NCBI GenBank assembly: GCA_021732085.1
Contig: JAKFVQ010000013.1
Location: 1-64,000 of the forward strand
Length of the DNA: 64,000 nucleotides
DNA from: Candidatus Obscuribacterales bacterium
GTDB taxonomy: Bacteria; Cyanobacteriota; Vampirovibrionia; Obscuribacterales; Obscuribacteraceae
Direction of reading: 5' to 3'
The notes below the pieces were generated by a model. The model saw only the letters and a list, made by a program, of their open reading frames with translations. It was not told the origin of the DNA and searched no databases. Below, in pieces: positions 47,001 to 63,384 of this stretch. Within the stretch, counting starts at the first letter, position 1. The number at the start of each line of letters is the position of its first letter. Made by a program: the position numbers and the translations under genes.

Positions 47001-47069
47001 GGCTCGGTAGAGACAGCGGCGATAAGAGAATACGAGGCAGCAAAGAAAATTTGGGCGAGCAAAAAATAG
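44061..47069 (+). CDS. Ser/Thr kinase with membrane anchor and TPR-like repeats (1)
   Basis: A 1002-residue protein. The kinase domain covers about 20-290: a degenerate Gly-rich loop (SSGATSTVY), catalytic Lys K52 in ALKLL, HRDLKPGN (145-152) and MSPEQ. The DFG motif is DLG (168-170). A membrane segment (313-334, AVVWAAVAVTICLIAVIGIFIAG) follows, then about 660 residues of helical repeats outside the cytoplasm (for example FQLAIKFSNIVLES-type pairs). This is a receptor kinase with a sensing or scaffolding TPR region. GTG start. The next kinase gene overlaps by 19 bp. Confidence 0.88.
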   Translation: MGSESVDQNVILAAGADIADGKFEIVALISSGATSTVYRARHRLLGMDVALKLLNFSLLGREDCLARFQKEARVSSQLIHANLAKLIAYGTLDDGRPFLAIELIEGRTLCELLMAEETLKPERAIGFFMQICDGLEALHRNGIIHRDLKPGNIMVSSDGAIERVKIIDLGLIKELQSSDPKITKTGQILGSTAYMSPEQCLSKKIDERSDIYSFGCLMYECLAGTPPFGHDAGFVTMTKQTNEEPPPLSQFKKDSLPPGLEEIIRLALEKDASRRYQTVGELKDHLRRCLDGELSSRFMRAHNVISPGTRSGAVVWAAVAVTICLIAVIGIFIAGRSKHSTLASHEIVQVTPKRNDQRQLLNKARRMAQEPVLAPEGQIQNTLRQTEVMMKYYELWLENHPKSELLHKAKAEYQLFIYSQILANSKLASEHEKKAERYFQQLLKEKTKIIETSTDKSSYEFVIAATIGANCAKSLGDLAVQAGRPADAAKYHSLRWRLSRAAQPTGSEDSIVEDLSICRTLHALESYVDEESVLRAMRLGPNNKPAYELVFASPSELSEFAAGPQAVSTRMAFLSALYRNQIALKKESNAMKVYSFMTDFASTVKSPWDMALAYQALAGDAQKGRNFELAIKFSNIVLESLSCLPDQNRREVVECKLAVLVLAGTTSQILNRQGEAAKYFSECLPYAGNRHYDVLVLQCLREYFITAVSIRDQKLCDQLIEQYRKVAEARDDRAQDEIVLGYFRLKRLSLIPGDHQKEYSAIVDEVISVRTSARQSCLAEQIAVARALAEMGQLQLSEKLLQHVVAANDNSAALWDHVLTAKIILAGVKAELKEYQAAIDLLAGINRSFGDPFLTADFQMQRAVIGLTSSIGLHRNDLIKHYSDQGIMLLSSDCLPEGKAALLTTLCRYYQSTGQVDKSIPAARRALSLTREFCAPNTSRMAAQEILLAKQLINTNQSESANLFKDAVSIAKSATDAPADGSVETAAIREYEAAKKIWASKK

Positions 47070-49735
47070 AACCGCAACTTTTGGAACTTGGAAAACTGTT
47101 CGAGGATAAGTTTGAAATCCTTTCTGTCTTGGGGCGCGGAGCTAGTGGAGTCGTGTACAAGGCGCGCCACTTGTTGCTGCAGACCTTCGTCGCTCTTAAA
47201 GTAATCAATCAAAACTCTAGTGACCCTGAACTGGCCGCTCAAAGGTTTCAAAAAGAGGCTACACTGCTCAGCAGTTTTGATCATCCCAATATCGTCAAAC
47301 TGCATTCATATGGAATATTGCCGGATGGAAGGCAGTACATGGCACTGGAGTTTATTGAAGGTGAATCGTTATCTGAGCAGATTGCAAAGTCCGGACCGCT
47401 AGAGTACTCGCGCGCAATTGCAATATTTGAACAAATATGTGGGGCTCTATCGTACTCCCATTCGCGTGGCGTTGTGCATCGCGATATCAAACCGGCCAAT
47501 GTGATGGTTGATGCCGATGGCAAAGCAAGAATTTTAGACTTCGGAATATTCAAATCGCTGGACAACTCCAGCCAGAGTTTGACAAAGACCGGCTATTTAG
47601 TTGGTAGCGCCAATTACATGAGTCCTGAGCAATGTAAGCAGCAGGACATCGATGATCGTTCCGACATCTATTCATTTGGGTGTCTGATGTATGAATGCCT
47701 CGTCGGGCAGCCTCCGATGCAAGATTCCTCCGATATGGCAATAATGGCAAATCAGATGCAGCGGACCATTGATCGCGTACCTGCTCGTTATGGTATCTCG
47801 AAAAAATTGGAGGAAACTATTCTCCGCTGCCTGGCAAAACATCCATCAAGGCGCTTTCAGTCTGCAAGTGAACTCGAGGGTTCTCTTCGCGATTGTGCCC
47901 AGGCATCGCTTTCGGAGAGGGTGGAAGCAACAAGTAATAGAAAGTGGATGTTTGCATCGATTGCTGTGGCAGCCGTCATTATTCTTTGTGGACTCGCTTC
48001 ATGGCGCTATTGGCAGGACCAGCAAACTAAAAAGGCTATTACAAATATCGCCCCGACTACACAATCGAGCCTTCAAGAGACGGGACGAATGTTGCCACCG
48101 GAAGGCAACCGAACAGTCAAAGCGACAGACCAACGGGAGCGATGGATAGCGAAAAATGGAAGCCACGAAGAGCAGAAAAAGCTGATCGAGCTGTATGCCC
48201 TTTGTTGGCATCACAGGCGGGAACAGGGACGTCCGGTGCCACCGCCTCATGGTGAAATTGTTAAAGCGAGGCTGGAGTATTTACTTGCTAATTCAGAAGT
48301 GACCGAAGGTCGTTATGGACTCCTGCGCGATCTTGCGTTTCTTTCATCAATGCTTGCTGACGACGCCTCTGTTGAGAAGTATATTAGCGAGCTTGAGAAG
48401 CGCGGTGAGTCCCTGTATGAAGCAAACCGGCGAAAGGCTTTGAATGCGGCAATTTTCAATGTCGTGACAATTTACCAGGAGCTTGGACGCGATTCTGATG
48501 GACTGCTCTTGCTTAAGCGTGAGGACGCTACCGGTCTCAGTGGCGATGAGAAAATCGTGTACAACGATGGTATCGCCATGAACTACGTCGCTCTGAAGGA
48601 CATTGAAAGTGCCAGGCCCTTTGCACTGCAATCTGCTAGTTTATTGAAAAGCCAGATGGACCAGGGAAGCTTGCCCCAGCCGAACGTTATTTATTCTGTT
48701 GTTAGTCGCCTTAATCAGGTTCAACGGCCTGATCTCGTTTTTGAGATAGTGGGGAAGCTGCCACCGATTACGGAAGAAAAGAAACGTGCAGATGGAAATT
48801 GGCGGCACGTCGAGTGTGAATTGGCGAACTCGTACCTTTATACAAATCAGCTAGAGAAAGCTAAGCAGATTTACCTGAGCAATATCGGTGAGATACGAAA
48901 CAGCGAGCCGTCTGAACAAGTGCTTGGCGCCGAGCGGCTCCTTCTTACCATATTGTATAAACAAAACAAAAAGGAAGAGGTACTTACGCAAGCCAGAAAT
49001 TATCTCGAGACGGTCCCTGCTTCATCTTACGTGACTGCTTCAAGGCAAGTCGTAAACATGTTGGTTGTATGGAAAATAGATGCAAGCTCACTGGAGCCGC
49101 TCATTTTAGCCAAGGCAAAATCTCGTGAAGGAATTGATCCCAGTCGATCTCACCGGCTCTATGAAACTCTAGGCAAAATTTTCCTCTACTCCGGAAATTC
49201 CAAGAAGGCAGGGGCATACTATGAGCAAGCCAGAAAGCTTGCTGCGTCTGCTGGAAATGAGCAAGGGGTTGCAGCTGCGCTGACTGGGAAAATGACATGC
49301 TTGATTTACGAGAACAAATTGCCAGAATTTATGGCGGTGCGCCAGTCCTTCCTACAGCTTCAGGATGTTTCTTTAGATGATCGCTTCACCGCAGAAGAGC
49401 TTATGGGCCTTTTCTATCAAACAAATAAAAACTTCAAGAAAGCAATTGAGATATACGAGAAACTGCTTTCAGAAGCAGAGCCGAAAGGCAGAAGAGATCA
49501 TATTCCGTCTGCCTATTGTGATTGCGCTCTGCACCTGGCAATGTCTTACAAAGAACTCGGGAACGATGATAAAGCCTTGCAGGCTGCGGAGCGGGGAATT
49601 AGCGCGGCAAAGACGGCCCGTAAGCATACTAATGCGGATATGCTGTACGATTATGCCGCCGACCTTTGCCAGAAATCGAATCCGCAGAAAGCTGCAAGAT
49701 ACAGAAGAACTGCAAGTAAACTACGCAAAGTCTAA
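47051..49735 (+). CDS. Ser/Thr kinase with membrane anchor and TPR repeats (2)
   Basis: An 894-residue protein from a TTG start inside the end of the previous kinase gene (19-bp overlap), which implies coupled translation. Kinase motifs: GRGASGVVY, K50 in ALKVI, HRDIKPAN (143-150), DFG (163-165) and MSPEQ. A membrane segment (299-319, WMFASIAVAAVIILCGLASWRY) is followed by about 570 residues of TPR-like helices (KKAGAYYEQARKLA, KKAIEIYEKLLSEA, DKALQAAERG). It is a paralogue of kinase 1; together they may form a heteromeric receptor, an inference. Confidence 0.9.
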   Translation: MGEQKIEPQLLELGKLFEDKFEILSVLGRGASGVVYKARHLLLQTFVALKVINQNSSDPELAAQRFQKEATLLSSFDHPNIVKLHSYGILPDGRQYMALEFIEGESLSEQIAKSGPLEYSRAIAIFEQICGALSYSHSRGVVHRDIKPANVMVDADGKARILDFGIFKSLDNSSQSLTKTGYLVGSANYMSPEQCKQQDIDDRSDIYSFGCLMYECLVGQPPMQDSSDMAIMANQMQRTIDRVPARYGISKKLEETILRCLAKHPSRRFQSASELEGSLRDCAQASLSERVEATSNRKWMFASIAVAAVIILCGLASWRYWQDQQTKKAITNIAPTTQSSLQETGRMLPPEGNRTVKATDQRERWIAKNGSHEEQKKLIELYALCWHHRREQGRPVPPPHGEIVKARLEYLLANSEVTEGRYGLLRDLAFLSSMLADDASVEKYISELEKRGESLYEANRRKALNAAIFNVVTIYQELGRDSDGLLLLKREDATGLSGDEKIVYNDGIAMNYVALKDIESARPFALQSASLLKSQMDQGSLPQPNVIYSVVSRLNQVQRPDLVFEIVGKLPPITEEKKRADGNWRHVECELANSYLYTNQLEKAKQIYLSNIGEIRNSEPSEQVLGAERLLLTILYKQNKKEEVLTQARNYLETVPASSYVTASRQVVNMLVVWKIDASSLEPLILAKAKSREGIDPSRSHRLYETLGKIFLYSGNSKKAGAYYEQARKLAASAGNEQGVAAALTGKMTCLIYENKLPEFMAVRQSFLQLQDVSLDDRFTAEELMGLFYQTNKNFKKAIEIYEKLLSEAEPKGRRDHIPSAYCDCALHLAMSYKELGNDDKALQAAERGISAAKTARKHTNADMLYDYAADLCQKSNPQKAARYRRTASKLRKV

Positions 49736-49759: not shown

Positions 49760-52700
49760 CTATTGGCGTTCGGACAGTCGTTTGAGAAGAGATTTTGCCT
49801 CCTCTGCATATCCGGAAACTTTGTAAAAATGCGCAGTTTCGCGCACCGTATCATCGAATGGTTTTTGAAGTGTCTTGTCAATTTTGCATTGAAGAGCTTT
49901 CTCTGAAAATTCCTCTGCGCTAGCTGGCTCGTGTAATTTGATGTACATCTGAGTAGCGGAAATGTAGATCAGCGCTTTTAAGTAGTTTGATGCACCGTCT
50001 GCGGCTTTCAACATTAGGCCAATTTGCTCTTTGGCTTTTTGAGGATCGTGTTTTCTCAAATACGCTTCCGTCATCACTTTTCGGCACTCAAAATTGAGTC
50101 GATTGTTTCCACCACTGGCCATTGATAACGCTTGTTGAGCTGCTGATAGTGAACCATCAAGATCGTAATCAAGCCTCCATGCTGATAGTTCCCACAGCTG
50201 TTGCGCCGTGGCGTTCCGATTTCCTTGCAGTGCTATGCATTCGAGTTTCTGTTTGTCAGCTACCTTCGGATTTGTGCGATAAGAGGAAGCGCTCAATGCG
50301 GCTAGTGCCTCCATCCTTCCCTCAATTAGCTCTGGATTCTTTTCGAGCAATTCACTGAGTTCGTTTCGATATTTGTCTGTCTTTTGCTTTTCATTAGAAC
50401 TAACGGCAAGAAGCAGCAAGCTAGAAAGGCTCTTCATGCGTCCGCTGTCTGTTTTTGACAAGTTAAGCGCATGCTGAAATGCGGCTTCGACATGAGGCCA
50501 GGATTTGCTCCATCCCATCCTTTCCCCATGCCGCCGCCAGTAGGCTGCCAATAGTGCTGGTTCGCTTTGGCTCAAAGACTTCGCTTTGTCGAGAGCGTCT
50601 TGTTGAATGATGAGCGCTCGCGAAAGCTCTTCCCTATTGAAATAGAGTTCCCCTAAATAAAATCGCCAAATGAGAACTTCCTTTTCGGCTCCCTTCGACT
50701 GCCATAATTTTATTCGTTCCTGAACCACGTCCTTGCTAATCTTGAGCCCCGGATTATTTGCCATTACGAGGTTTAAGAAGGAGCCAGCGAGTGTTTCCAT
50801 TTCGCTGCTATCCAGCATTTTGAATTTCTTTGCGTACCTGTAGGCTTGTTCATAAGTCGAGACACCATTTTTCCAGTCACCTCGATCTTCATAAATCCAC
50901 ATCAGGTGAGCGTAACAGGCCAAGGTCGTTAGACCGGTTGTTTGTGGTAGCCAGTCCTTGATCAGCTTCTCCGCTTCCTGGTCTTTTCTTTGAAGCCGGA
51001 GCATTGAGCAAAGGTGCAGTGTATGCACTGATCTGTAGTCCGGACGAAGATTTATCAACTCGCGATAGAGCTGCTCCCCTTTAACTCCTTCACGCTGCCG
51101 TTGGCAAAAGTCGGCATAATCGTTTAGCGTCCAATAGTATTGGTTTGGATCTCGCTGAGAAGCTGATAGAGCTTTTTCGAACTCCTGTTGGGCCGAATTA
51201 ATGTCGCGCGATTTTTCGAAGAGTAAAGCTTTCGCTTGATGGTAGAGCGCCAGCTCGGCACCGCTTTTCAGTTTTTTGATATCAATCTGCGAAAGTTTTT
51301 CCCTGCAGAAATTCAAATCGGGATCGTTATCATGTTGACCCAACCAAAAACGAATAGATTGAACTCGCTTTGGATCGGTTGTAGACATTTCAACGGATTT
51401 GCGGAAGCTCTTTCTTTTATTGCTGCTGTCGTGAAGAAGGTCATACGTGATCCCATGGGCGCAATAACAGTCAGGCACAATCTGCTCGCATTCGGGAGCG
51501 TCTTCGAATTGTTTTAGGGCTTCATTTTCAATTCGCAATGCATTTTGAAATTCGCCTTTATTTTTTAAAAGATCGGATAGTCGAAAGGTCCAATGTAGCT
51601 CCCATTGTGGACGATTTCTATTCTTGTTGAGCCTGATTCTCTCATTGGCAAACTCTGCCAGTCCTGTGTATTTCTTTTCCTGGCGAAAGAATTCGAAGTA
51701 ATCTGTTAGCACACGCTCCCATGTATCCGCTTCATCTGCGCCAAAGGAGAACTTGTCCAATTCCGGCTTTGCAGCGCTTATTACGCTTCTGGCAAGTGCT
51801 GGATCGTGCAGTTGCCTTGAAAACGATAGGACGTCGCGGGCAATCATGAGTTTGTCGTTGGCATTTGGCTGTGTCGTCAACCCGACGATCGCGCTTGGCA
51901 AATACTTGTTTCTTAGAAGGTCTGAATCCTCGCCACATTCAATTGCTGATTTGGCGTAGTGGATCAAAGTTCGTGGAATCTGAGCAAGCTCCGGTGAGCT
52001 TCTAAATGCTTCTCGAATTTTCTCCAAGCTGTTTTTGGCCTGTGAAAAATCGCCCGCCAGAATGTAGATAGTGACGTTGTTCGAAAGGGCTTCGATATAG
52101 TCGTACGGCTTTACTTTGCGGGAAATTGTAACGGCTTCGTTTGAATCGCTGATTGCAAGATCATATTGTTTGGCGGCAATTTCTCTTTCGGCCAAATTGT
52201 TCAAGAGTTTGACCAGGTCAAGGGAAGGCTTTGCCTTGCGCATAAGCTTTGTGTGAAGCTTTATCAGCGGGATGTACTGCTCGTCGGTCATAAAAGGCGA
52301 CTTCGATTCAATCTTATGCAGAAGTACGCTACCGCTTTGTATTGGCTTTGCAGCACAAATATCGCTCAGGTACGCAGTTGCCTCTTTGAGCTGCGGTATT
52401 TTTTCGAAATCGTGCTGATCCATTTGGGACAAGACACGGATAGCTTCCCAAGCCCAGTAGCTGGCATCGGAAGCGTCCTTCAGTTTGTTGACTTCTTTTG
52501 AATTTTCCAGCGCGAACTGAAAGGCTTTTATTGAACCCTTCTTTGAATAGTATTTTTCGTAGATGCGTTTTTGCAGTTGTGAGGCCGCAGTGGACGCGCC
52601 CAAGAGGCGTTCTTGTTGAATAATTTCTCGCAGAATCGCAAGGCGAAAGTTGTCCGGCTTCCAGACCAAAAGAACATCGCTGAAGATTTTCAGCCCTGCT

Positions 52701-53704
52701 TCTGTAAACCACATAACGATTGCAAGCAGGACCAGAGAGCCGATCGCGATGCCCGCGAAGAACACCGGCTTGCTCTGTTTTGATCCTGTATTCTTGTCTG
52801 GAATAGCGCTGCTCGTGTTAGCGAAAGCTGTGCTCTGTGTTCCTCGTTCTGTGAGCACGAGGTCAAGATCCGAAATGAATTCCTGCATGGTCTGGTATCG
52901 GTTTTCGGGCTTTTTTGCTAGACCTTTGAGCATTACTTCTTCAAGTCCAGCAGGCAGAGCTGGCGTCAATTTTGATGGTGGTAGAACAGACTCGGTCATG
53001 TGCTTATGCATGAGTCCGATTGGATTGTCAGCCTGGTGTGGTACTTGACCGGTAATGCATTCGTAGAAAATGCAAGCTAAGGAATAAATGTCGGAGCGCG
53101 CATCCGGTATTTGTCCGGCGGCAAGCTCTGGGCAGATATAGTGGATGCTGCCCATCAAAGCCCCAGTTTGAGTGAGCTTTTGGACGTCCTTCGAGTCCGG
53201 AGCGATAATTTTTGCCAGTCCGAAATCCAACACTTTTACAAAGTCCGGCGTGGGTTCATCAAGAAGAACTATGTTATTCGGGCTTAGATCGCGGTGGATT
53301 ACGCCCAGGTTGTGCGCATATGACATTGAATCGGCGACTTGTCTGATGATGGCGCTAGCTCTTTTCCAGGGCAGTTTCTCGGCGGTGCTCAAACGAGATC
53401 GCAGGCTCTTTCCTGCCACATATTCCATCACTATGAAAGGAAGAAGATTCTGATAGAGTCCATAGCTGTAAAAACGCCCTATGTTTTTGTGATTCAAGTT
53501 GGCGAGCGCAAGCGCCTCTCTTTCGAAGCGTGCTCGAATTTCCGGGTCGTGCATCAGGCTCGCGTGAAGTAATTTGATAGCGACATCGCGATTGAGATCT
53601 ATTTGTTTGGCGTGAAAAACTACGCCCATGCCGCCACTTCCAGCAACGGACAGTATCTGGTACTTGTCTTGAAAGATGGTTCCAACTAGATTTGGGCTGT
53701 CCAC
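49760..53704 (-). CDS. Ser/Thr kinase with membrane anchor and TPR repeats (3)
   Basis: A 1314-residue protein, GTG start. The N-terminal kinase domain has GSGGMGVVF, K44 in AIKLL, the catalytic loop HRDLSPNN (137-144) and DFG (160-162). The Ser (S141) replacing Lys of HRDLKPxN also occurs in some bacterial kinases; catalysis may persist. A membrane segment (313-334, PVFFAGIAIGSLVLLAIVMWF) is followed by nearly 1000 residues of TPR-like repeats (AEKLIKDWLPQTTG, WKNGVSTYEQAYRYAKK). It faces the kinase 2 gene, leaving 24 bp between stop codons, and starts 218 bp from ftsH. Confidence 0.9.
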   Translation of the reverse strand: MDSPNLVGTIFQDKYQILSVAGSGGMGVVFHAKQIDLNRDVAIKLLHASLMHDPEIRARFEREALALANLNHKNIGRFYSYGLYQNLLPFIVMEYVAGKSLRSRLSTAEKLPWKRASAIIRQVADSMSYAHNLGVIHRDLSPNNIVLLDEPTPDFVKVLDFGLAKIIAPDSKDVQKLTQTGALMGSIHYICPELAAGQIPDARSDIYSLACIFYECITGQVPHQADNPIGLMHKHMTESVLPPSKLTPALPAGLEEVMLKGLAKKPENRYQTMQEFISDLDLVLTERGTQSTAFANTSSAIPDKNTGSKQSKPVFFAGIAIGSLVLLAIVMWFTEAGLKIFSDVLLVWKPDNFRLAILREIIQQERLLGASTAASQLQKRIYEKYYSKKGSIKAFQFALENSKEVNKLKDASDASYWAWEAIRVLSQMDQHDFEKIPQLKEATAYLSDICAAKPIQSGSVLLHKIESKSPFMTDEQYIPLIKLHTKLMRKAKPSLDLVKLLNNLAEREIAAKQYDLAISDSNEAVTISRKVKPYDYIEALSNNVTIYILAGDFSQAKNSLEKIREAFRSSPELAQIPRTLIHYAKSAIECGEDSDLLRNKYLPSAIVGLTTQPNANDKLMIARDVLSFSRQLHDPALARSVISAAKPELDKFSFGADEADTWERVLTDYFEFFRQEKKYTGLAEFANERIRLNKNRNRPQWELHWTFRLSDLLKNKGEFQNALRIENEALKQFEDAPECEQIVPDCYCAHGITYDLLHDSSNKRKSFRKSVEMSTTDPKRVQSIRFWLGQHDNDPDLNFCREKLSQIDIKKLKSGAELALYHQAKALLFEKSRDINSAQQEFEKALSASQRDPNQYYWTLNDYADFCQRQREGVKGEQLYRELINLRPDYRSVHTLHLCSMLRLQRKDQEAEKLIKDWLPQTTGLTTLACYAHLMWIYEDRGDWKNGVSTYEQAYRYAKKFKMLDSSEMETLAGSFLNLVMANNPGLKISKDVVQERIKLWQSKGAEKEVLIWRFYLGELYFNREELSRALIIQQDALDKAKSLSQSEPALLAAYWRRHGERMGWSKSWPHVEAAFQHALNLSKTDSGRMKSLSSLLLLAVSSNEKQKTDKYRNELSELLEKNPELIEGRMEALAALSASSYRTNPKVADKQKLECIALQGNRNATAQQLWELSAWRLDYDLDGSLSAAQQALSMASGGNNRLNFECRKVMTEAYLRKHDPQKAKEQIGLMLKAADGASNYLKALIYISATQMYIKLHEPASAEEFSEKALQCKIDKTLQKPFDDTVRETAHFYKVSGYAEEAKSLLKRLSERQ

Positions 53705-53922: not shown

Positions 53923-56900
53923 CTAGGCGTTTGGCTCCTCTTCAGGATTCTGGGCGCGAATGACGATATCGCGGTTGTTTCCCGCCCCGCCATTTCCGCC
54001 TCCATTTCCACCGGTGCTGCCTCCTGTTGGGGCTCCACCGCCAAATCCCATGAATCCGTGTAGCGAAAGCTGTGGAGTTTTTCCAACGAGCTTGCGCTCG
54101 GCAAGTTCAGCGATTTCTCTGTCAATGTCCTCGTCAGTACGGCTCGGTTCGAGAAGTCTGACAAGATCCTTGAAGTACAGGGTTTCTTTCTCCATTAATG
54201 CGTTTGCAATTGCTTCAAGTTGCGGCTTCTTGGTCATCAACAATTTCTCAGTATCAATTCTGCATTTCTCAACTACTTCTTTGATTTGCAGTTCAATTTC
54301 GCGCGACGTATCATCGCTTGCGAATTGTCCTGATCTGTCGTTTTGATATGCATAGCTGGCGCTGAAAGTGAAGTCACCCATTCCGAAGCTGGTGATCATG
54401 TTTCTTGCTACACTGGCGGCGTTTCTTAGGTCTTGGCTGACGCCGCTGCTGTTTTCACCATAGAAGAGCCGTTCAGCAACTAAACCGCCCAGCGAGATTT
54501 CGATGTCTACAAAGTAGTCATCTTTGAATTTGCCGTGCCTTTCTTCCTTGTCTACTCGCCACACGTACCCTAGTGCGTTGCCGCTTGGAACTACGGTGAC
54601 AATTTGGATACGATGGTGCTTGTTCCGGAAGTAAGCGACGACTGCATGTCCTGCTTCGTGAATGGCTGTCGCTCTGAGTTCGTCAAGGAGGATATGTCTG
54701 CTGTAAGACATACCGAAGGATTGTCGCTGTATCGCTTGGATAAGGTCGATTTGAGTAACCTCTTCACGCCCATTGCGTACGGCATTCAATCCGGCTTCGT
54801 TGACAATGTTTTGCAAATCAGCGCCGGCCTTCCAAACAGTCATGCGAGCAATTTCTTTGATGTTGACTTTGGAATCAACTTTCACCTTCTTCAAGTAATG
54901 TTCGAGAATCCCTTCGCGTCCTTCCAGGTTTGGAAGTGGTACATCGATCCTTCTATCGAATCTGCCTGGACGGAGAAGCGCTTGGTCAAGAAGTTCGGGG
55001 TGGTTGGTTGCGCCTATAGTGAGCACTTTGTGCTTGCCAAAGCCATCCAATTCCACGAGAAACTGATTGAGTGTCTTGTTTGAATCTTGGATTGCTCCGC
55101 CACCCAGGTCGATTCCTCTTTTGCCACCGATCGCATCGATTTCGTCAATAAAGACGATCGCTGGCTTGCCGCTTCTTCGAGCTTGTTCATACACGGCACG
55201 GACACGGTTTGCACCAACGCCCGCCCACATCGATTGGAAGTCCCCACCTGAGAGTGCGTAAAAAGGTACTCCGGCAGTATTAGCGATTGCTTTTGCAAGC
55301 ATCGTTTTACCTGTTCCAGGAGGTCCGACCAGAAGAACGCCTTTTGGGGCCTTCAGACCAGTTGTACGAATCTTGTCCGCATTTTTCAAGAGAGCAACGA
55401 CTTCGGCCGCCTCTCCCCGGGCTTCTTCCATTCCTTTTATGTCTTCGAGCCTGACGTCGAGGTCCGGAACTCGGGCAAGGTTCATTCCATAAGTATTGAG
55501 CTTGTGCCCAGCCGTTACCGACAATCGGTCAACCGCTGCTTCAAGATCACTCTCTTCAACATGCGTCTTACCTGATCTCACTGCGATGATTGCTGCTTCG
55601 TTTACTGTTGCGGCAATGTCGGCGCCTGAGAAGTTTGTCGTTATTTGCGCTAATGAATCCAAATCTGGCTCAGAGGCCATTTTGATCTGACCCAAATATC
55701 TTTGGAAGATTTGTTTGCGTGCCTCGGCATCGGGCAAGCCGACATAAGCTTTTCTATCGAAGCGACCGGACCGTACAAATGCAGGGTCGAGGTTCGTCTC
55801 ATTGTTTGTTGCACCAACGGTAATCACATTGCTTCGGGTGAGCCCATCCAACTCTATGAGTAGTTGATTCAAAGCGCTGGTCCGCTGATTGCCAGTGTCG
55901 GACATGGTTCCAGAGATTGCATCGATCTCGTCGATGAAAATGATTGCAGCCGGACTTTTTCTGGCTTGCGAATACAGCGCCTTAATGCGACTAGCTCCTT
56001 CGCCTGCAAATTTGCTGACGAAGTAGCTGCCAGACATTCCGAAAAATGGCACGTTCGCTTCATTCGCCATTGCTTTTGCAAGCATGGTCTTACCCACACC
56101 GGGTGGTCCAATTAAGAGGACGCCCTTTGGAATCTTTGCGCCAATTTCTCGCAGTTGATCTCCATGTTTGAGAAAATCTACGATCTCGAGAATGTCTTGT
56201 TTAACATCATCGATTCCAATCACGTCAGCTAATCTAACTGTTGAGTCAGCTGTTCCGACCTCTACGCCAGAGCCGACTAGAGTTCGGTTCACATTCTCGG
56301 CGGCATTGAAGACAGCTGTTTTAAGCACTTCTGCGTTCACAGTCCCGGGACCGCCTGGGCGTTGTCCTATCAACGCGGCCTCGTTGACTGCCGTTGAGAT
56401 GTCTGCCGGCGAATAGTTCTGTGTAAGCTTTGCAAACTCATCGAGATCAATTCCGTCTTTCTGATGTTTGACCTTATTCAGATAGTAATTGAATAGATCC
56501 TTGCGCTCGTCTGGTGTCGGTGTCTGGAAGTAGATTTTTCTGTCCATTCGTCCTGCACGCATAAGTGCTGGGTCGAGGGCACCATCATTGTTTGTGGCAC
56601 CAATGACGATGACGTTGCATCCGCGGAACCCATCCATTTCGGTCAGTAATGTGTTTAGAGACATGTTGAGATCTGCTTGACCGCCGAACCCTTTGTCGCC
56701 CTGTCTCACGCTGCCAATGGAATCGATTTCGTCGATAAATAGAATCGCTTTTCCATGTTTGCGAAGTCTGGCAAACATTGTGCGAATTTTTAGAACTCCT
56801 AGTCCCATGATGATGCCACTGAGAGCGCCGCCTTCGACACAGTAGAAGGGGCAACCAACTTCATTGGCGATTGCTCTTGCGAACAAAGTCTTACCAACAC

Positions 56901-57333
56901 CGGGCGGTCCTACAAAGAGCATGCCTTTGGGTAGCTCTGCGCCGGACTCTTCGTAATGTTTCGGATGCGAAATCATATCGATGACTTCGCGAATTTCTTG
57001 TTTTGCCCGCTCGTTCCCGATCAGGGCATCTAATGTTTGAGGTGCCTTGGGGCTAATTGGTGGATCCAAGAATAGCCATGGGAATGTGCGTTTCCAAAAT
57101 CCGACCGGAGCTTTGGCATCTGCTCGCGGTGGCATCGGGAAGATCAGCATCAACAGCACATACATCTGAATAATCATGATGATGCCGCCGAAAATTGCGC
57201 CTGAAGCCAGTGAGAGCACTGAGTACTTCAATAACGCCGGGAACGAAGTGAATGGATTCCAGACTGCCGCGGTCGTTAACAGCAGCAAAACCCAGACGAT
57301 CAAGACGGTCCAGCGTGCCCAAGGTTTTAACAT
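53923..57333 (-). CDS. FtsH-like protease with three tandem AAA+ domains
   Basis: A 1136-residue membrane AAA protease, about 500 residues longer than normal FtsH. Two N-terminal membrane segments (9-25 and 38-66) enclose only about 12 residues, so the usual periplasmic domain is absent. Three AAA+ modules follow, with Walker A at 142-149 (GPPGVGKT), 409-416 (GPPGVGKT) and 670-677 (GPPGTGKT). Each has Walker B IDEID and an arginine-finger motif (GRMDR, GRFDR, GRFDR). Then comes the M41 protease domain with zinc motif HEAGH (892-896) and third ligand D968 in SQDLRN. Normal FtsH pore loops (FVG) read IMG, FAG and WAG here. The tail is Gly-rich. Confidence 0.93.
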
Positions 57334-57355: not shown

Positions 57356-57637
57356 CTACATATTTCCGCCGAATGGGAATTCGGCGGGTTGAGGATTGTT
57401 CTTGTCCTCGATTTCGGTAGTAAAAATCACTGGTCGGGATTTCTCATTTATGTTGATTTCGCCGACGAGGCTGTTGTCGCCTGTCTTAACTGAGCCCGTG
57501 GTGGTCCCTTTCATTTGCCCGATTCCGGAGGGCCATTCGACCGGCAGATAAGCAGGGCAAACGCCAAGAGCTGCCCCAATGCTGTTAAAGATGCAGGACA
57601 GCACAAGGCAGACTATGAAGCTAACGACGAATCTCAT
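57356..57637 (-). CDS. Small exported or membrane protein upstream of FtsH
   Basis: A 93-residue protein with an N-terminal hydrophobic segment (FIVCLVLSCIFNSIGAALGV) that is a signal peptide or anchor. The soluble part has EWPSGIGQMKGTTTGS and EININEKSRPVIFTTEIED, which looks beta-rich. It ends 22 bp before the triple-AAA FtsH gene on the same strand, so co-transcription is likely. It may be a partner that replaces the missing periplasmic domain. No family is recognised. Confidence 0.65.
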   Translation of the reverse strand: MRFVVSFIVCLVLSCIFNSIGAALGVCPAYLPVEWPSGIGQMKGTTTGSVKTGDNSLVGEININEKSRPVIFTTEIEDKNNPQPAEFPFGGNM

Positions 57638-57964: not shown

Positions 57965-58453
57965 TTATCTAACCTGGAGCTCATTGTCAAGAACACTTGC
58001 CAGTGAGTTCTTTGGCATAGCGCCCTGAAATTGTTGTAGCTGCTTCCCGTCTTTGAACACCATGAAGGTGGGCCAGGCTTGAATCTGATACTTCTCTTTC
58101 AACAATGGATTTTGGTCGGTATCTACCTTGTAGATCTTGAATTTGCCCTCGTAGTCATGGGCAAGCTGATCGATGATCGGTCCCATTTCGCGGCAAGGAG
58201 CGCACCAGGGAGCTGAGAAATCTACTAAAACTGGCAGCTGCGACTGCAACACATCCTGGTCGAAGGAGGCATCGCTGGTCTCTGGAGCAGCAGTTGAGGT
58301 GGCTTCGGTATTGGTGCTGCCATCGGTCGTGCTTTGATCGGTCGTTGGAGTCGGTGCAGGCATAGGCGGCGTTGAAGGGCCAAATAGCCCTCCATTCAGC
58401 ATTGCGCCGATAACGACGCAGACGAGGAACGCAATGACCATATCTTTAATCAC
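57965..58453 (-). CDS. Membrane-anchored thioredoxin-like protein
   Basis: A 162-residue protein. The N-terminal hydrophobic segment (MVIAFLVCVVIGAMLNGGLF) anchors or exports it. A Pro/Thr/Ser-rich linker of about 40 residues follows, then a thioredoxin domain with active site WCAPC (C84, C87) and the cis-Pro loop AWPTFMVF. WCAPC in place of WCGPC suggests a tuned redox potential. Extracytoplasmic disulfide exchange is likely. A downstream partner is not obvious. Confidence 0.87.
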   Translation of the reverse strand: MIKDMVIAFLVCVVIGAMLNGGLFGPSTPPMPAPTPTTDQSTTDGSTNTEATSTAAPETSDASFDQDVLQSQLPVLVDFSAPWCAPCREMGPIIDQLAHDYEGKFKIYKVDTDQNPLLKEKYQIQAWPTFMVFKDGKQLQQFQGAMPKNSLASVLDNELQVR

Positions 58454-58649: not shown

Positions 58650-58973
58650 TTATAGATGCTTGTTGACTGCGTTGGCGAGCGTGGACTTCGGAACTGCTCC
58701 GACCACTTGCTCGACAACTTGTCCGGACTTAAACAAGAACAAGCTAGGAATACCCTTGATAGAGTATGCTTGCGCCGTTTTCGGATTCTCGTCCGTGTTC
58801 AACTTAACAACTTTAAGTCTGCCGTCATATTCTTTAGACAAATCTTCTACTACCGGAGCGACAGCCTTACAAGGACCACACCAGGGGGCCCAGAAATCGA
58901 CCAGGACCGGGAGATCGGACTTGAGGACTTCTTGCTCAAAAGTATTGTCGGTCACGCTAACAACGCTGGACAT
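58650..58973 (-). CDS. trxA: Thioredoxin
   Basis: A 107-residue cytosolic thioredoxin, the standard length. Active site [10 protein letters not shown] (C32, C35), buried Asp in LPVLVDFW (D26), cis-Pro in GIPSLFLF and the C-terminal Gly-Ala pattern [10 protein letters not shown]. It reduces disulfides in cytosolic enzymes. GGGAGG precedes the ATG. A TATAAT sits about 75 bp upstream. Confidence 0.96.
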
Positions 58974-59154: not shown

Positions 59155-60663
59155 ATGGGTTCATTTCAAAACACCTACAACTGGTTCTTCAAATCCCTTG
59201 CCAATCAATTGCTTGGCACCTATTTACTTGTCACGGCTTTTGCTCTTGCTATCGTGACTTTCTGGGCCCTTTTTACTATCAAAGCCGAATCCACTCGTGA
59301 ATTGCACAACAAACTTGAAGTCGAAGCGGTGCACCTTGGTCTTGAAATTGACAACGACCTTTCTCTTGACTCCGCAAAGGCCACTGAGCGCATCCAGGCT
59401 GCTGTCGATCGCCATGCCAGCAAGTTAGGTTACTCAATCACCGTTGTAAACAAGCAAGGGCACGTTTTGGCAGAGGCTGGTTCGGAAGAGCCGCAGGAAG
59501 GCCAGAATATTTCCAGCGATCCCGAAATCAGCGATGCGTTAGCCGGTATTTTGGGGCAATACAGACGACCTGTCGGAGCCAAAAAAGCAGAATGGATGTA
59601 CGTTGCATATCCGGTCCGCTCTCCGTTTGAAACACTTGGAGTGATTCGTGTCGGAATTCCATTGACCGATCTCAATCAACGTTTAAATCAGGACCTCATA
59701 TTCTTTCTTGAGATTATTGTGTCCGCGTTGATAACCACGGCGTTAATCAGTATTTGGTTGGCGCGCCGGGTGACTCAGCCTATCCGCCACATCAGTCAAC
59801 TGTCGCAGGAGATTGCTAAATCGGGCGACATTACAGCCTTTGTGCCGGTGCAAAGAAAGGATGAGATTGGCGAATTGGTGACTTCCTTCAATCAAATGAT
59901 CGGCCGTTTGCGCGAAGAGGAAAAGCTGAAGCAGGACTTCATCGCAAATGCGAGTCATGAATTGAAAACACCAACGATGGCTATTGGTTCTGTTGTAGAA
60001 GCCTTGCAGGCTGGTGCTGCCGAGGATCCAGAACTGCGTGCGCGCTTCTTACGTTCACTGGAAAATCTGGTGGAACGTCAAACAAGCCTTCTACGCGATC
60101 TTCTCGACGTCGCTCAACTAGATGCCGGCGTCAAGATTCAGTGGTCTGAAGATATTAGACTTTCTGACACTATAAAAGAAGCGGTAGAGCAAATCAGAGC
60201 CCAAGCTGATAAGAAGAAGGTGCAGTTGAAGATTGAATCGCCGCCGGATGGATTTGTTGTAATTGGCAACGGCATACAACTGCAACGTGCGTTCATCAAT
60301 CTGCTGACTAATGCAGTGAACTACACTCCATCTAATGGAGAAGTGCGAGTATCTGTCTCGCCGATCGAGGATGGTCACGTCGACATTCTCATCAGCGATA
60401 CAGGTACAGGAATTGAGCAAAAAGATCTTCCACACATCTTCGATCGATTTTACAGAGCAGATAAAGCTAGAAGCCGTTCGGGAGCCGGCGGCACTGGTTT
60501 GGGTCTGGCAATTACTCGCGAAATAATAAACAGGCATCATGGTGCAATTTCAGTCGACTCAACGCCTGGGGTAGGCACCACTTTTACCGTGCGGCTTCCG
60601 ATTAAAAACTTGCTGGCGCTGGATCAAGGAAAGGGCGCTCTCAACACAGCTCCAGAGCAATAA
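59155..60663 (+). CDS. Sensor histidine kinase
   Basis: A 502-residue membrane histidine kinase. Two membrane segments (about 19-41 and 182-202) flank an extracytoplasmic sensor region. A HAMP domain follows (RRVTQPIRHISQLSQEIAK to FNQMIGRLR). The HisKA box is SHELKTP with H268, and the ATPase has NAVNYTPSNG, DTGTGIE, FDRFYRADKA and GTGLGLAITREI. All kinase motifs are intact. No response regulator lies beside it, so it is an orphan in this window. The ATG lacks a good ribosome-binding site. Confidence 0.94.
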   Translation: MGSFQNTYNWFFKSLANQLLGTYLLVTAFALAIVTFWALFTIKAESTRELHNKLEVEAVHLGLEIDNDLSLDSAKATERIQAAVDRHASKLGYSITVVNKQGHVLAEAGSEEPQEGQNISSDPEISDALAGILGQYRRPVGAKKAEWMYVAYPVRSPFETLGVIRVGIPLTDLNQRLNQDLIFFLEIIVSALITTALISIWLARRVTQPIRHISQLSQEIAKSGDITAFVPVQRKDEIGELVTSFNQMIGRLREEEKLKQDFIANASHELKTPTMAIGSVVEALQAGAAEDPELRARFLRSLENLVERQTSLLRDLLDVAQLDAGVKIQWSEDIRLSDTIKEAVEQIRAQADKKKVQLKIESPPDGFVVIGNGIQLQRAFINLLTNAVNYTPSNGEVRVSVSPIEDGHVDILISDTGTGIEQKDLPHIFDRFYRADKARSRSGAGGTGLGLAITREIINRHHGAISVDSTPGVGTTFTVRLPIKNLLALDQGKGALNTAPEQ

Positions 60664-61089: not shown

Positions 61090-61175
61090 ATTAGCAAGCG
61101 GATTCCGACTGCGCGATTGCGACAGAGCAAATACTCGGCTGTGTTTTTGGTCTGTCGCAAGCTATGCTTGCTAAT
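61090..61175. other. Nested two-stem inverted-repeat structure
   Basis: The outer arms ATTAGCAAGC (61090-61099) and GCTTGCTAAT (61166-61175) and the inner arms TTGCGACAGA (61117-61126) and TCTGTCGCAA (61151-61160) are both perfect 10-bp inverted repeats. The side loops are 17 and 5 nt and the inner loop 24 nt. The right end covers the stop codon of the metalloprotease gene. No T-run follows on either side. Confidence 0.7.
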
Positions 61176-63144
61176 TGTTCTTTGGGGCTATTGATTTAGG
61201 AGTTGTGCGCGGTGCTGTTGGCGCGGTGGGCTTTTTAGCCGCTGGCTGTGTTATTTTCGGCAGGGCGCTAGCGGGCTTTGTGGCGTTGGTGCTTGCCGGT
61301 TTAGCTGCTGGAGTGCTTGCCGGTTTTGCTGCTGGAGTGCTTGCTGGTTTAGCTGCTGGAGTGCTTGCTGGTTTAGTTGCTGGAGTGCTTGCTGGTTTTG
61401 CTGGTGAACTGCTTGTCGGTTTTGCTGAAGGAGTGCGTACCGCTCCGGGTTTTAAACCGGGCACCATTTTCTTCGCTGAAGGTTTACCAATAACAGCTTT
61501 TACTGTTGGTTTGGCACCGGCTTTTGCCGTCGGTTTAACTCCCGGTTTGGCCAGAGGTTTAGATCCTGTGCTGGAGAATGCCGGTGCTGTTGGCGGCATA
61601 CCGGTATCGGCAGGCGAAATATCTGCATCTGTCGTTGGTGTATTCGAACTGTCTGTAGAGCTCGAGCCTGTACTGGTATCACCATCGGTGCCTGGCTCTG
61701 GTCCTGGATTAGTGGGCTCCGGCTCTCCTGTCGGCGCGGCAGGATTATACACCGGTTTTTGCCACGGCGCGTTTCCTGATGCCGTCATTCCGCGAGGTGG
61801 TTTCATTCCAAAATGCTTGTACAAATCATTGATTTCGTCGGCGCGCGCTACTCTCGTCAAGAATACTGAATAGTTATTCAAAAGCATCGGTAAATTACCG
61901 TCGCGCACTTCTTGCTCTAAGGCCAGAGCTCTTGCAAAATGTTGTTCGACATTGGCAAGTTTGTTTTCGTTGAGCAGTTTGAGGGCGTGGTTACCTTCTG
62001 TAGTGATGATGTTCGTCTTTATCACTGTTTTGTCCGGTCGCAAGCGCAATGCCTTGTCCAGTTTTTTGAGCGCTTCATCATACTTCTGTTCGTTCATGAG
62101 TCTGATACCCTGGTCATTCAGGGTCATCCAGTTCTCTAGCTGTTCTGAATAAAGCCTTCGAATTGTCTGCACGTCGCGCGAGCTGAGCTGCGGATTCACT
62201 TTTTGCGGAGCCGAGAAAAACATGATGTCAGCGGGATTTCGGCTGTGCCCAACTATGCCCAACCCATGACCCAGCTCGTGCAAGGAAATCCAATAAACTA
62301 GCGAATCGTTTAGTCTTACAGTCGGGGAAGGATCTAGTGTAAGCAAGGTCACGTCCGCGTGGTCAATGCCGGCTGCGGTCGCGGAATAGCGGACATCACC
62401 GCCTTCGGAGCGATTCACTCCGGCAGTCAGGTCGTTCGTCCATTTTACGACGATATCACCCTTGGTGGCATCGTCTACTTTTACGATGCTCATTTTTCCC
62501 TCTAGAGCTTTAATCCAATCATCGAGCGCATTCTCGAGTGCTTGTCCGTAGCTCGGTTTGTAACCCTGCACTCCATCGCCTGGCTTCAAGTAAATCTTCA
62601 AGGGCATGCGGCTGGCTGACCAGCGCTGTTTTTGATCTGTAGATAGCTCATCAATGTAGTCAGGTTTGTTGAGCGAATCCGGTCCAACGCCAGTCGCGAG
62701 CAATTTATCGATTTCGGGAATATGAGCTTTGATGTGTTCGCTATAAGGATTATGCGGAGCCAATGCCACAAACTTCTGCAATGATGCTTTGGCGGACACC
62801 AGATCTCCCAAGCCCTCTTGTACTAATCCTAAATTTAGCCACATCAAATCGTAGTCAGGTTTTACTTGTGTCCCTCTAAGTAAGCGCTCCTTCGCTTCTT
62901 CCAGCTTCCCCATTTTCATCAATGCCAGACCATAATTGCAGAGAATGTTCGCATCGTTAGGAAGTACTTGTACGGCCTGGCTTAATACGTTCTCGGCCGC
63001 CGCAAAGTCTCCGTTCTTTATGAGAACCACACTGTTGTTGTATAGGTCTATGGCACGATTTCTGGCTTCTTCGCTTTGTGCGTTAACTGCAGAAATTGAT
63101 AGTAGGAGGCTTAGAGAAAACGAAAAAAGTTTCTTCAAAGGCAT
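61171..63144 (-). CDS. Exported matrixin-like metalloprotease with TPRs
   Basis: A 657-residue protein from the ATG at 63144, chosen because it gives a signal peptide (KLFSFSLSLLLSISAVNAQ). TPR helices occupy about 25-145. The protease domain has the long zinc motif HELGHGLGIVGH (289-300) and a Met-turn in ADIMFF (M308), marking a metzincin of the matrixin type. More TPRs follow (DEALKKLDKALRLRPDK). The C-terminal 150 residues are a Pro/Ala/Ser/Thr/Lys-rich tail with PAAKPAST repeats, perhaps a wall or surface linker. No pro-peptide Cys switch is clear. Confidence 0.87.
   Translation of the reverse strand: MPLKKLFSFSLSLLLSISAVNAQSEEARNRAIDLYNNSVVLIKNGDFAAAENVLSQAVQVLPNDANILCNYGLALMKMGKLEEAKERLLRGTQVKPDYDLMWLNLGLVQEGLGDLVSAKASLQKFVALAPHNPYSEHIKAHIPEIDKLLATGVGPDSLNKPDYIDELSTDQKQRWSASRMPLKIYLKPGDGVQGYKPSYGQALENALDDWIKALEGKMSIVKVDDATKGDIVVKWTNDLTAGVNRSEGGDVRYSATAAGIDHADVTLLTLDPSPTVRLNDSLVYWISLHELGHGLGIVGHSRNPADIMFFSAPQKVNPQLSSRDVQTIRRLYSEQLENWMTLNDQGIRLMNEQKYDEALKKLDKALRLRPDKTVIKTNIITTEGNHALKLLNENKLANVEQHFARALALEQEVRDGNLPMLLNNYSVFLTRVARADEINDLYKHFGMKPPRGMTASGNAPWQKPVYNPAAPTGEPEPTNPGPEPGTDGDTSTGSSSTDSSNTPTTDADISPADTGMPPTAPAFSSTGSKPLAKPGVKPTAKAGAKPTVKAVIGKPSAKKMVPGLKPGAVRTPSAKPTSSSPAKPASTPATKPASTPAAKPASTPAAKPASTPAAKPASTNATKPASALPKITQPAAKKPTAPTAPRTTPKSIAPKNN
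61289..61408. repeat. 24-bp tandem repeat, five units
   Basis: Five near-identical 24-bp units start at 61289, 61313, 61337, 61361 and 61385. They encode the PASTPAAK octapeptide repeats at the C-terminus of the metalloprotease. Copy number could vary between strains. Confidence 0.85.
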
Positions 63145-63384
63145 GATGTCTAAGAATGAGATTGAGTTGTAAGTTTCGCGTTCAGATAATGATATCAGTT
63201 GCGGCAGCAAAGCTTGCTGAACTGCTTAGGCTACAAATACACTGCGAATCTTCGCAGTCGGCACTGCCAGGATTACTAGAGTTCTTTTTTTTGGCTGTAA
63301 GCGGCTTCCTGATTGGGAGAACTACCATTCCCCAAACAGTGAATGGAACTTAAGCTATAGACGATTGATGTCCGTGAGCACAAG

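What the first reader, a model, noticed from the sequence alone, without database searches (positions are those of the whole stretch)
53923..57333. FtsH-type protease with three tandem, intact AAA+ modules
Ordinary FtsH has one AAA+ domain and about 600-650 residues. Here three complete AAA+ modules, each with Walker A, Walker B and arginine-finger motifs, precede an intact M41 protease (HEAGH, D968). The periplasmic domain is nearly absent, and pore loops differ between modules (IMG, FAG, WAG). I know of no described FtsH of this build. It could form a stacked three-ring unfoldase feeding one protease ring.
Basis: partly seen in the sequence, partly recalled or inferred. Interest (0 to 1): 0.9.

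Follow-up and report, generated by a model that had tools for sequence, protein, structure and literature searches.

The report
FtsH protease with three ATPase modules
A whole order of uncultured cyanobacterial relatives carries, beside the ordinary FtsH membrane protease, a second FtsH in which one protein chain holds three complete ATP-driven unfolding modules before a single protease domain, a build I found described nowhere, encoded in an operon with thioredoxin-fold and small membrane proteins.

Summary
The gene at 53923-57333 (minus strand) is one uninterrupted 1136-residue ORF: a membrane hairpin with a ~12-residue outside loop, three FtsH-type AAA+ modules (residues ~99-345, 366-605, 627-872), then an M41 protease (HEAGH 892-896, D968). 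It is not an assembly fusion. 50 of 53 genomes of its order (Obscuribacterales, Vampirovibrionia) have it, 42 of them full length, normally beside a canonical ~660-aa FtsH. No other sampled genome of the class (236) or phylum (202) has it. ATPase motifs are conserved in all three modules of 22 orthologues. Pore loops are not equal: module 3 has an invariant Trp, module 1 is mostly non-aromatic, module 2 varies and is partly deleted in some. A tree makes each module one clade; all three are FtsH-type, so the gene arose by duplication before the order diversified. The gene ends a conserved block: histidine kinase (divergent), thioredoxin, membrane-anchored thioredoxin-fold protein, unknown single-TM protein, FtsH. 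I read it as a membrane protease with three stacked unfoldase rings; stacking is inferred, and the models were too poor to test it. Literature searches found no such FtsH. In nine related genomes the small neighbour has an in-frame TGA that looks like selenocysteine.

The parts
53923..57333 (-). Triple-AAA FtsH (1136 aa): membrane hairpin + 3 AAA+ modules + M41 protease + Gly/Asn-rich tail
57139..57309 (-). N-terminal membrane hairpin (residues ~9-65) with a short outside loop [13 protein letters not shown] (25-37)
   Evidence: sequence; helices 5-24 and 32-64 in a low-confidence model; loop largely invariant in 22 orthologues
56299..57045 (-). AAA+ module 1 (residues 97-345), pore loop I-M-G
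   Evidence: best NCBIfam match FtsH, 237.5 bits, next 173; alignment A1
55516..56238 (-). AAA+ module 2 (residues 366-606), pore loop F-A-G here, variable or partly deleted in orthologues
   Evidence: best NCBIfam match FtsH, 303.7 bits, next 231
54718..55455 (-). AAA+ module 3 (residues 627-872), pore loop W-A-G with invariant Trp
   Evidence: best NCBIfam match FtsH, 326.8 bits, next 255
54100..54687 (-). Peptidase M41 domain with HEAGH 892-896 and third ligand D968
   Evidence: Pfam PF01434 1.2e-40 for the whole protein; NCBIfam FtsH 1e-37; invariant residues
57356..57637 (-). Small single-TM protein of unknown family, 22 nt upstream of FtsH; conserved partner gene
   Evidence: no Pfam match; family A3 found next to FtsH in 47 of 53 genomes of the order
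57965..58453 (-). Membrane-anchored thioredoxin-fold protein; CxxC intact here, lost in many orthologues
   Evidence: Pfam Thioredoxin 4.1e-30; alignment A4; conserved position
58650..58973 (-). Soluble thioredoxin (WCGPC), conserved upstream neighbour
   Evidence: Pfam Thioredoxin 1.2e-34; synteny
59155..60663 (+). Divergent HAMP/HisKA/HATPase sensor kinase, conserved neighbour
   Evidence: synteny

Best explanation
This is a second, membrane-anchored FtsH-type AAA+ protease of Obscuribacterales whose single AAA+ module was multiplied to three within one chain by duplication inside an FtsH lineage, before the order diversified. SHOWN: one continuous gene in nearly every genome of the order; three FtsH-type AAA+ modules with complete ATPase motifs; complete M41 metal-site residues; conserved neighbours. 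INFERRED: like other FtsH proteins it forms hexamers, so the modules stack as three coaxial rings between membrane and protease ring, as in two-ring Cdc48. A substrate pulled from the membrane side would pass ring 1, ring 2 and ring 3 into the M41 chamber. Ring 3 (invariant aromatic W-A/V-G pore loop, joined to M41 as in ordinary FtsH) is probably the main threading motor. Ring 1 (mostly non-aromatic I-M-G loop) probably gates or engages substrate as Cdc48 D1 does. Ring 2 keeps ATPase motifs but a free pore loop, so it is probably regulatory or adds processivity. Its missing outside domain is probably supplied by two co-encoded membrane proteins, a thioredoxin-fold protein and a small single-TM protein. 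A quality-control role for membrane or envelope proteins linked to redox stress is likely.
For: ORF and domains. 50 of 53 order genomes, none of 236 others in the class or 202 others in the phylum. Each module alone matches the FtsH model best, well ahead of PAN or CDC48. Each module is one clade, and the three lie together with single-AAA short FtsHs of other Cyanobacteriota (bootstrap 98, SH-aLRT 94). Motifs invariant or nearly so in 22 orthologues; pore-loop differences. Inter-module linkers of ~20 residues. Operon conservation. FtsH needs an aromatic pore residue for unfolding, and Cdc48 D1 lacks it (PMC5511170).
Against: No hexamer could be modelled. Monomer models are of low confidence: the full-length model aligns with p97 over two modules (TM up to 0.64 by target length), the module 2-3 model does not (TM about 0.42, rmsd 15 A). 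No biochemistry exists. Nothing shows that substrate passes all three pores, or that the neighbours bind the protease.
Confidence: 0.62

Rival explanations
1. Modules 1 and 2 are not threading motors: the pair is a chaperone-like or assembly platform on an otherwise ordinary one-ring FtsH, and only module 3 feeds the protease.
For: The pore loop of module 2 is partly deleted in several orthologues and module 1 is mostly non-aromatic, while module 3 keeps Trp in all 22. Module 1 sits on the longest stem branch, 1.34 against 0.55 and 0.45.
Against: Walker A and B, sensor 1 and arginine fingers are kept in both modules in all or nearly all orthologues, so ATP hydrolysis in trans is under selection; the module 1 motif GLIMGLG is itself conserved.
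Confidence: 0.22
2. Two chains with three modules each form one flat six-module ring, as dynein packs six modules in one chain, instead of three stacked hexameric rings.
For: Three modules per chain would fill a hexameric ring with two chains; each module has arginine fingers that could serve the next module in the chain (motifs).
Against: M41 proteases form hexameric protease rings (established for FtsH), which two chains could not supply; tandem AAA proteins of the same clade such as Cdc48 and NSF stack (established). Not tested here.
Confidence: 0.08
3. An assembly fusion or chance join of separate ATPase and protease genes.
For: Only the single MAG sequence, before comparison.
Against: The same uninterrupted build in 42 full-length and 8 contig-edge copies over 50 genomes, 60-85% identical.
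Confidence: 0.005
4. The extra modules are a neutral duplication kept by lineage history, with function equal to ordinary FtsH.
For: A canonical FtsH is present in most of the same genomes, so the triple form need not be essential.
Against: Conservation of active-site residues in all modules and of gene order across the order argues for a kept, distinct role.
Confidence: 0.07

Closest known systems
FtsH / AAA protease (NCBIfam TIGR01241; Pfam AAA + AAA_lid_3 + Peptidase_M41)
   Same: Membrane anchor at the N terminus, FtsH-type AAA+ module directly before M41, HExxH and third Asp ligand, aromatic-X-Gly pore loop in module 3.
   Different: Three AAA+ modules instead of one; outside loop of ~12 residues instead of a folded periplasmic domain; ~1100-1180 aa instead of ~650.
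Cdc48/p97 (two-ring AAA ATPase)
   Same: Tandem AAA modules with ~20-residue linkers; first pore loop mostly non-aromatic, last one aromatic.
   Different: No N domain; FtsH-type rather than CDC48-type modules (567 bits against a cut-off of 803); three modules, membrane anchor and built-in protease.
Short single-AAA FtsHs of other Cyanobacteriota (loci L096/L140, L097/L141, L100)
   Same: Their AAA module is closest to the three modules in the tree; about 500-555 aa, apparently without a periplasmic domain.
   Different: One AAA module; their M41 domain does not group clearly with the triple form.
Two-AAA FtsH paralogue in one order genome (L122, 1037 aa)
   Same: More than one FtsH-type AAA module before M41 in one chain.
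   Different: Two modules, a larger predicted outside domain, and its M41 falls with other paralogues, so probably an independent event.

Membership tests
FtsH / M41 AAA protease family | M41 domain with HExxH and third Asp ligand | tested here: met
   Pfam 1.2e-40; HEAGH and D968 invariant in 22 orthologues
FtsH / M41 AAA protease family | FtsH-type AAA+ module next to M41 with Walker A, Walker B and SRH arginines | tested here: met
   module 3, NCBIfam FtsH 326.8 bits
FtsH / M41 AAA protease family | One or two N-terminal TM helices | tested here: met
   two hydrophobic helices read from sequence, also helical in the model; no dedicated TM predictor was available
FtsH / M41 AAA protease family | Whole-protein score above curated cut-off | tested here: met
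   TIGR01241 995.7 bits against 600
FtsH / M41 AAA protease family | Usual layout of a single AAA+ module per chain | tested here: not met
   three modules; layout as reviewed in PMC9020784. A departure in architecture rather than in descent
FtsH / M41 AAA protease family | Hexamer and ATP-dependent, Zn-dependent proteolysis | not testable with these tools
   needs purified protein
Cdc48/p97 | Curated CDC48 score | tested here: not met
   567.2 bits against cut-off 802.65; each module alone scores higher with FtsH
Cdc48/p97 | Stacked tandem AAA rings | tested here: inconclusive
   low-confidence models disagree

The most novel reading that the evidence does not exclude
A three-ring AAA+ protease: one chain forms three stacked unfoldase rings on one M41 protease ring in the membrane, with its outside domain supplied by separate redox proteins, including a small partner that carries selenocysteine in some species.
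Probability: 0.4. Interest if true: 0.85.

Novelty: new variant of a known kind. Interest (0 to 1): 0.72.

Why it matters
From my own knowledge, AAA+ proteases have one ATPase ring (FtsH, Lon, ClpX, HslU) or two (ClpA, ClpC). A natural FtsH with three, kept across an entire order, would be a direct test of what extra rings do: raise unfolding force, add processivity, or gate substrate. The unequal pore loops give clear predictions per ring. The conserved thioredoxin-fold and small membrane partners point to redox-linked membrane protein quality control in non-photosynthetic relatives of cyanobacteria.

Tried and rejected
Assembly fusion: rejected by 50 genomes. Fusion with a Cdc48- or PAN-type ATPase: rejected, each module matches FtsH best. 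A candidate 1002-aa open frame in G316 proved to be a ~500-aa single-AAA FtsH in a long open frame. Stacking by structure prediction: two monomer jobs gave low confidence (57.6 and 63.0) and conflicting comparison with p97, so I draw no conclusion. Loss of protease and partner together in G004, G037 and G030 as evidence of coupling: rejected, because these genomes also lack the kinase orthologue of the block (best 34-35% identity), so the whole block is probably missing from the assemblies. Absence of canonical FtsH in the window's own genome: not interpreted, as the genome is 70% complete and genus mates have it. Invariant Cys1024 as a thioredoxin target: noted, no test. Limits of the survey: phyla other than Cyanobacteriota were covered only by the peptide-pattern scan, which finds close relatives; independent triple-AAA M41 proteins elsewhere cannot be excluded. 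Papers: only open-licence PMC texts were searched.

Full report
WHAT IS THERE. The ORF at 53923-57333 is on the minus strand, starts with ATG and encodes 1136 residues without a stop. Pfam finds three AAA, three AAA_lid_3 and one Peptidase_M41 stretch; NCBIfam's FtsH model scores 995.7 bits against a cut-off of 600. Scanned alone, each module matches FtsH best: 237.5, 303.7 and 326.8 bits, against 173, 231 and 255 for the next model. The N terminus is a hairpin of two hydrophobic helices with an outside loop of about 12 residues.

IT IS REAL AND CONSERVED. Public relatives are Obscuribacterales MAGs. With an alignment of 22 orthologues (A1) I searched 289 genomes of the class: 42 full-length copies and 8 contig-edge or split copies lie in 50 of 53 genomes of the order; no other of 236 class genomes has one, where the best match covers only module 3 plus M41. 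Among 202 further Cyanobacteriota genomes none has it. The three order genomes without it lack the kinase orthologue of the block too, so the block is probably missing from those assemblies. Most of these genomes also have a canonical FtsH of about 660 residues and up to 11 M41 genes.

MOTIFS. In 22 orthologues the Walker A lysine and Walker B DE are invariant in each module, and the sensor-1 Asn and RxGRxDR motifs are conserved; HEAGH and D968 are invariant. Pore loops differ. Module 1: Ile in 17 and Phe in 5 at the first position, then M/F/Y, then an invariant Gly. Module 2: F, W, Y, L or V, with gaps in 4 sequences. Module 3: Trp in all 22, then A/V/Q, then Gly. FtsH needs the aromatic and Gly residues for unfolding, and Cdc48 D1 lacks the aromatic one (PMC5511170).

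ORIGIN. In a tree of AAA modules each of modules 1, 2 and 3 is one clade (100/100). All three group with short single-AAA FtsHs of other Cyanobacteriota (98/94), apart from canonical FtsH. Since both families of the order (f1, f2) carry it, duplication preceded their split. The M41 tree keeps the triple form as one clade (100/99) without resolving its sister. The tree held few non-FtsH outgroups, so the FtsH origin rests mainly.

NEIGHBOURS. The gene is the last of a conserved block: divergent sensor kinase, soluble thioredoxin, membrane-anchored thioredoxin-fold protein, a small single-TM protein, then FtsH 9-71 nt downstream in most genomes. The small protein family (A3, no Pfam match) was found in 47 of 53 genomes, with nearly all hits adjacent to the protease where both lie on one contig. 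The CxxC of the thioredoxin-fold protein is lost in many orthologues, so it is not simply an oxidoreductase everywhere. I infer that these two proteins stand in for the missing outside domain of FtsH; physical contact is not shown.

SIDE FINDING. In seven species of one genus (g21) the small protein gene has an in-frame TGA at codon 42. The frame continues and stays conserved (155 synonymous to 155 nonsynonymous differences downstream, against 231 to 409 upstream), no start codon is shared downstream, and a Cys follows about 30 residues later. G017 and G049 have a TGA near the position of that Cys. After it come hairpins: in G017 a 7-bp stem with AGGU loop, spacing 19 nt, -15.6 kcal/mol; in G049 a similar stem, -9.4 kcal/mol. 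The G017 hairpin meets the published bacterial SECIS rules (PMC13188914), and the G049 one does if its closing G-U pair is counted as loop. The hairpin in the seven species meets the spacing but not the G-in-loop rule in the folds I saw. The order has tRNA-Sec (42 of 53 over cut-off, ARAGORN confirms ten with anticodon TCA) and selB (40 of 53). Rfam gave no SECIS match. G040 and G045 showed no tRNA-Sec over the cut-off but are incomplete. All nine genomes keep CxxC in the thioredoxin-fold partner. Over all loci, Cys or Sec outside the membrane goes with intact CxxC (14 of 29 against 1 of 14, counted by hand, Fisher p 0.015; related genomes, so suggestive only). The window's own copy has no TGA.

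HOW IT PROBABLY WORKS. See the best explanation: three stacked rings, ring 3 as main motor, rings 1 and 2 as gate or regulator. Stacking rests on analogy with Cdc48 and on the need for six M41 domains. My models could not test it: the full-length model has pLDDT 57.6 and pTM 0.32, aligning with p97 at TM up to 0.64 by target; the module 2-3 model has pLDDT 63.0 and pTM 0.41, aligning at about 0.42 with rmsd 15 A.

KNOWN OR NEW. FtsH as reviewed has one AAA+ module (PMC9020784). Searches for FtsH with Obscuribacter, Melainabacteria, tandem, two or three AAA domains returned nothing of this build. It is a member of the FtsH family by descent and catalytic motifs, and a new variant by architecture.

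Noticed in passing
L142-L148 (g21), L149 (G049), L150 (G017); window counterpart 57356-57637 without TGA: Small TM protein upstream of the triple FtsH carries an in-frame TGA in nine genomes, with conserved downstream frame, nearby hairpins and tRNA-Sec/selB in the order: candidate new selenoprotein family.
   Followed up: partly
L122:1256-4369 (G036): A 1037-aa FtsH paralogue with two FtsH-type AAA modules, both with Walker A and B, before M41: a second multi-AAA FtsH in the same order, probably independent.
   Followed up: partly
order genomes, e.g. G047, G028, G036: Unusual expansion of M41 genes, up to 11 matches per genome, many 700-820-residue open frames.
   Followed up: no
L127 and L132: M41 paralogues beside genes with an HExGH membrane-protease signature resembling site-2 proteases (M50).
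   Followed up: no
window 47051-49735 (+) and 49760-53704 (-): Two large Ser/Thr protein kinases with TPR regions lie next to the protease locus.
   Followed up: partly
window 61171-63210 (-): TPR protein with a matrixin-like (M10) metalloprotease domain.
   Followed up: no
window residue C1024 of the FtsH: A Cys in the M41 region invariant in all 22 triple-AAA orthologues but absent from most other M41 proteins compared; interesting beside thioredoxin genes.
   Followed up: no
L123 and L126: TPR plus FtsH-like AAA module proteins without M41.
   Followed up: no
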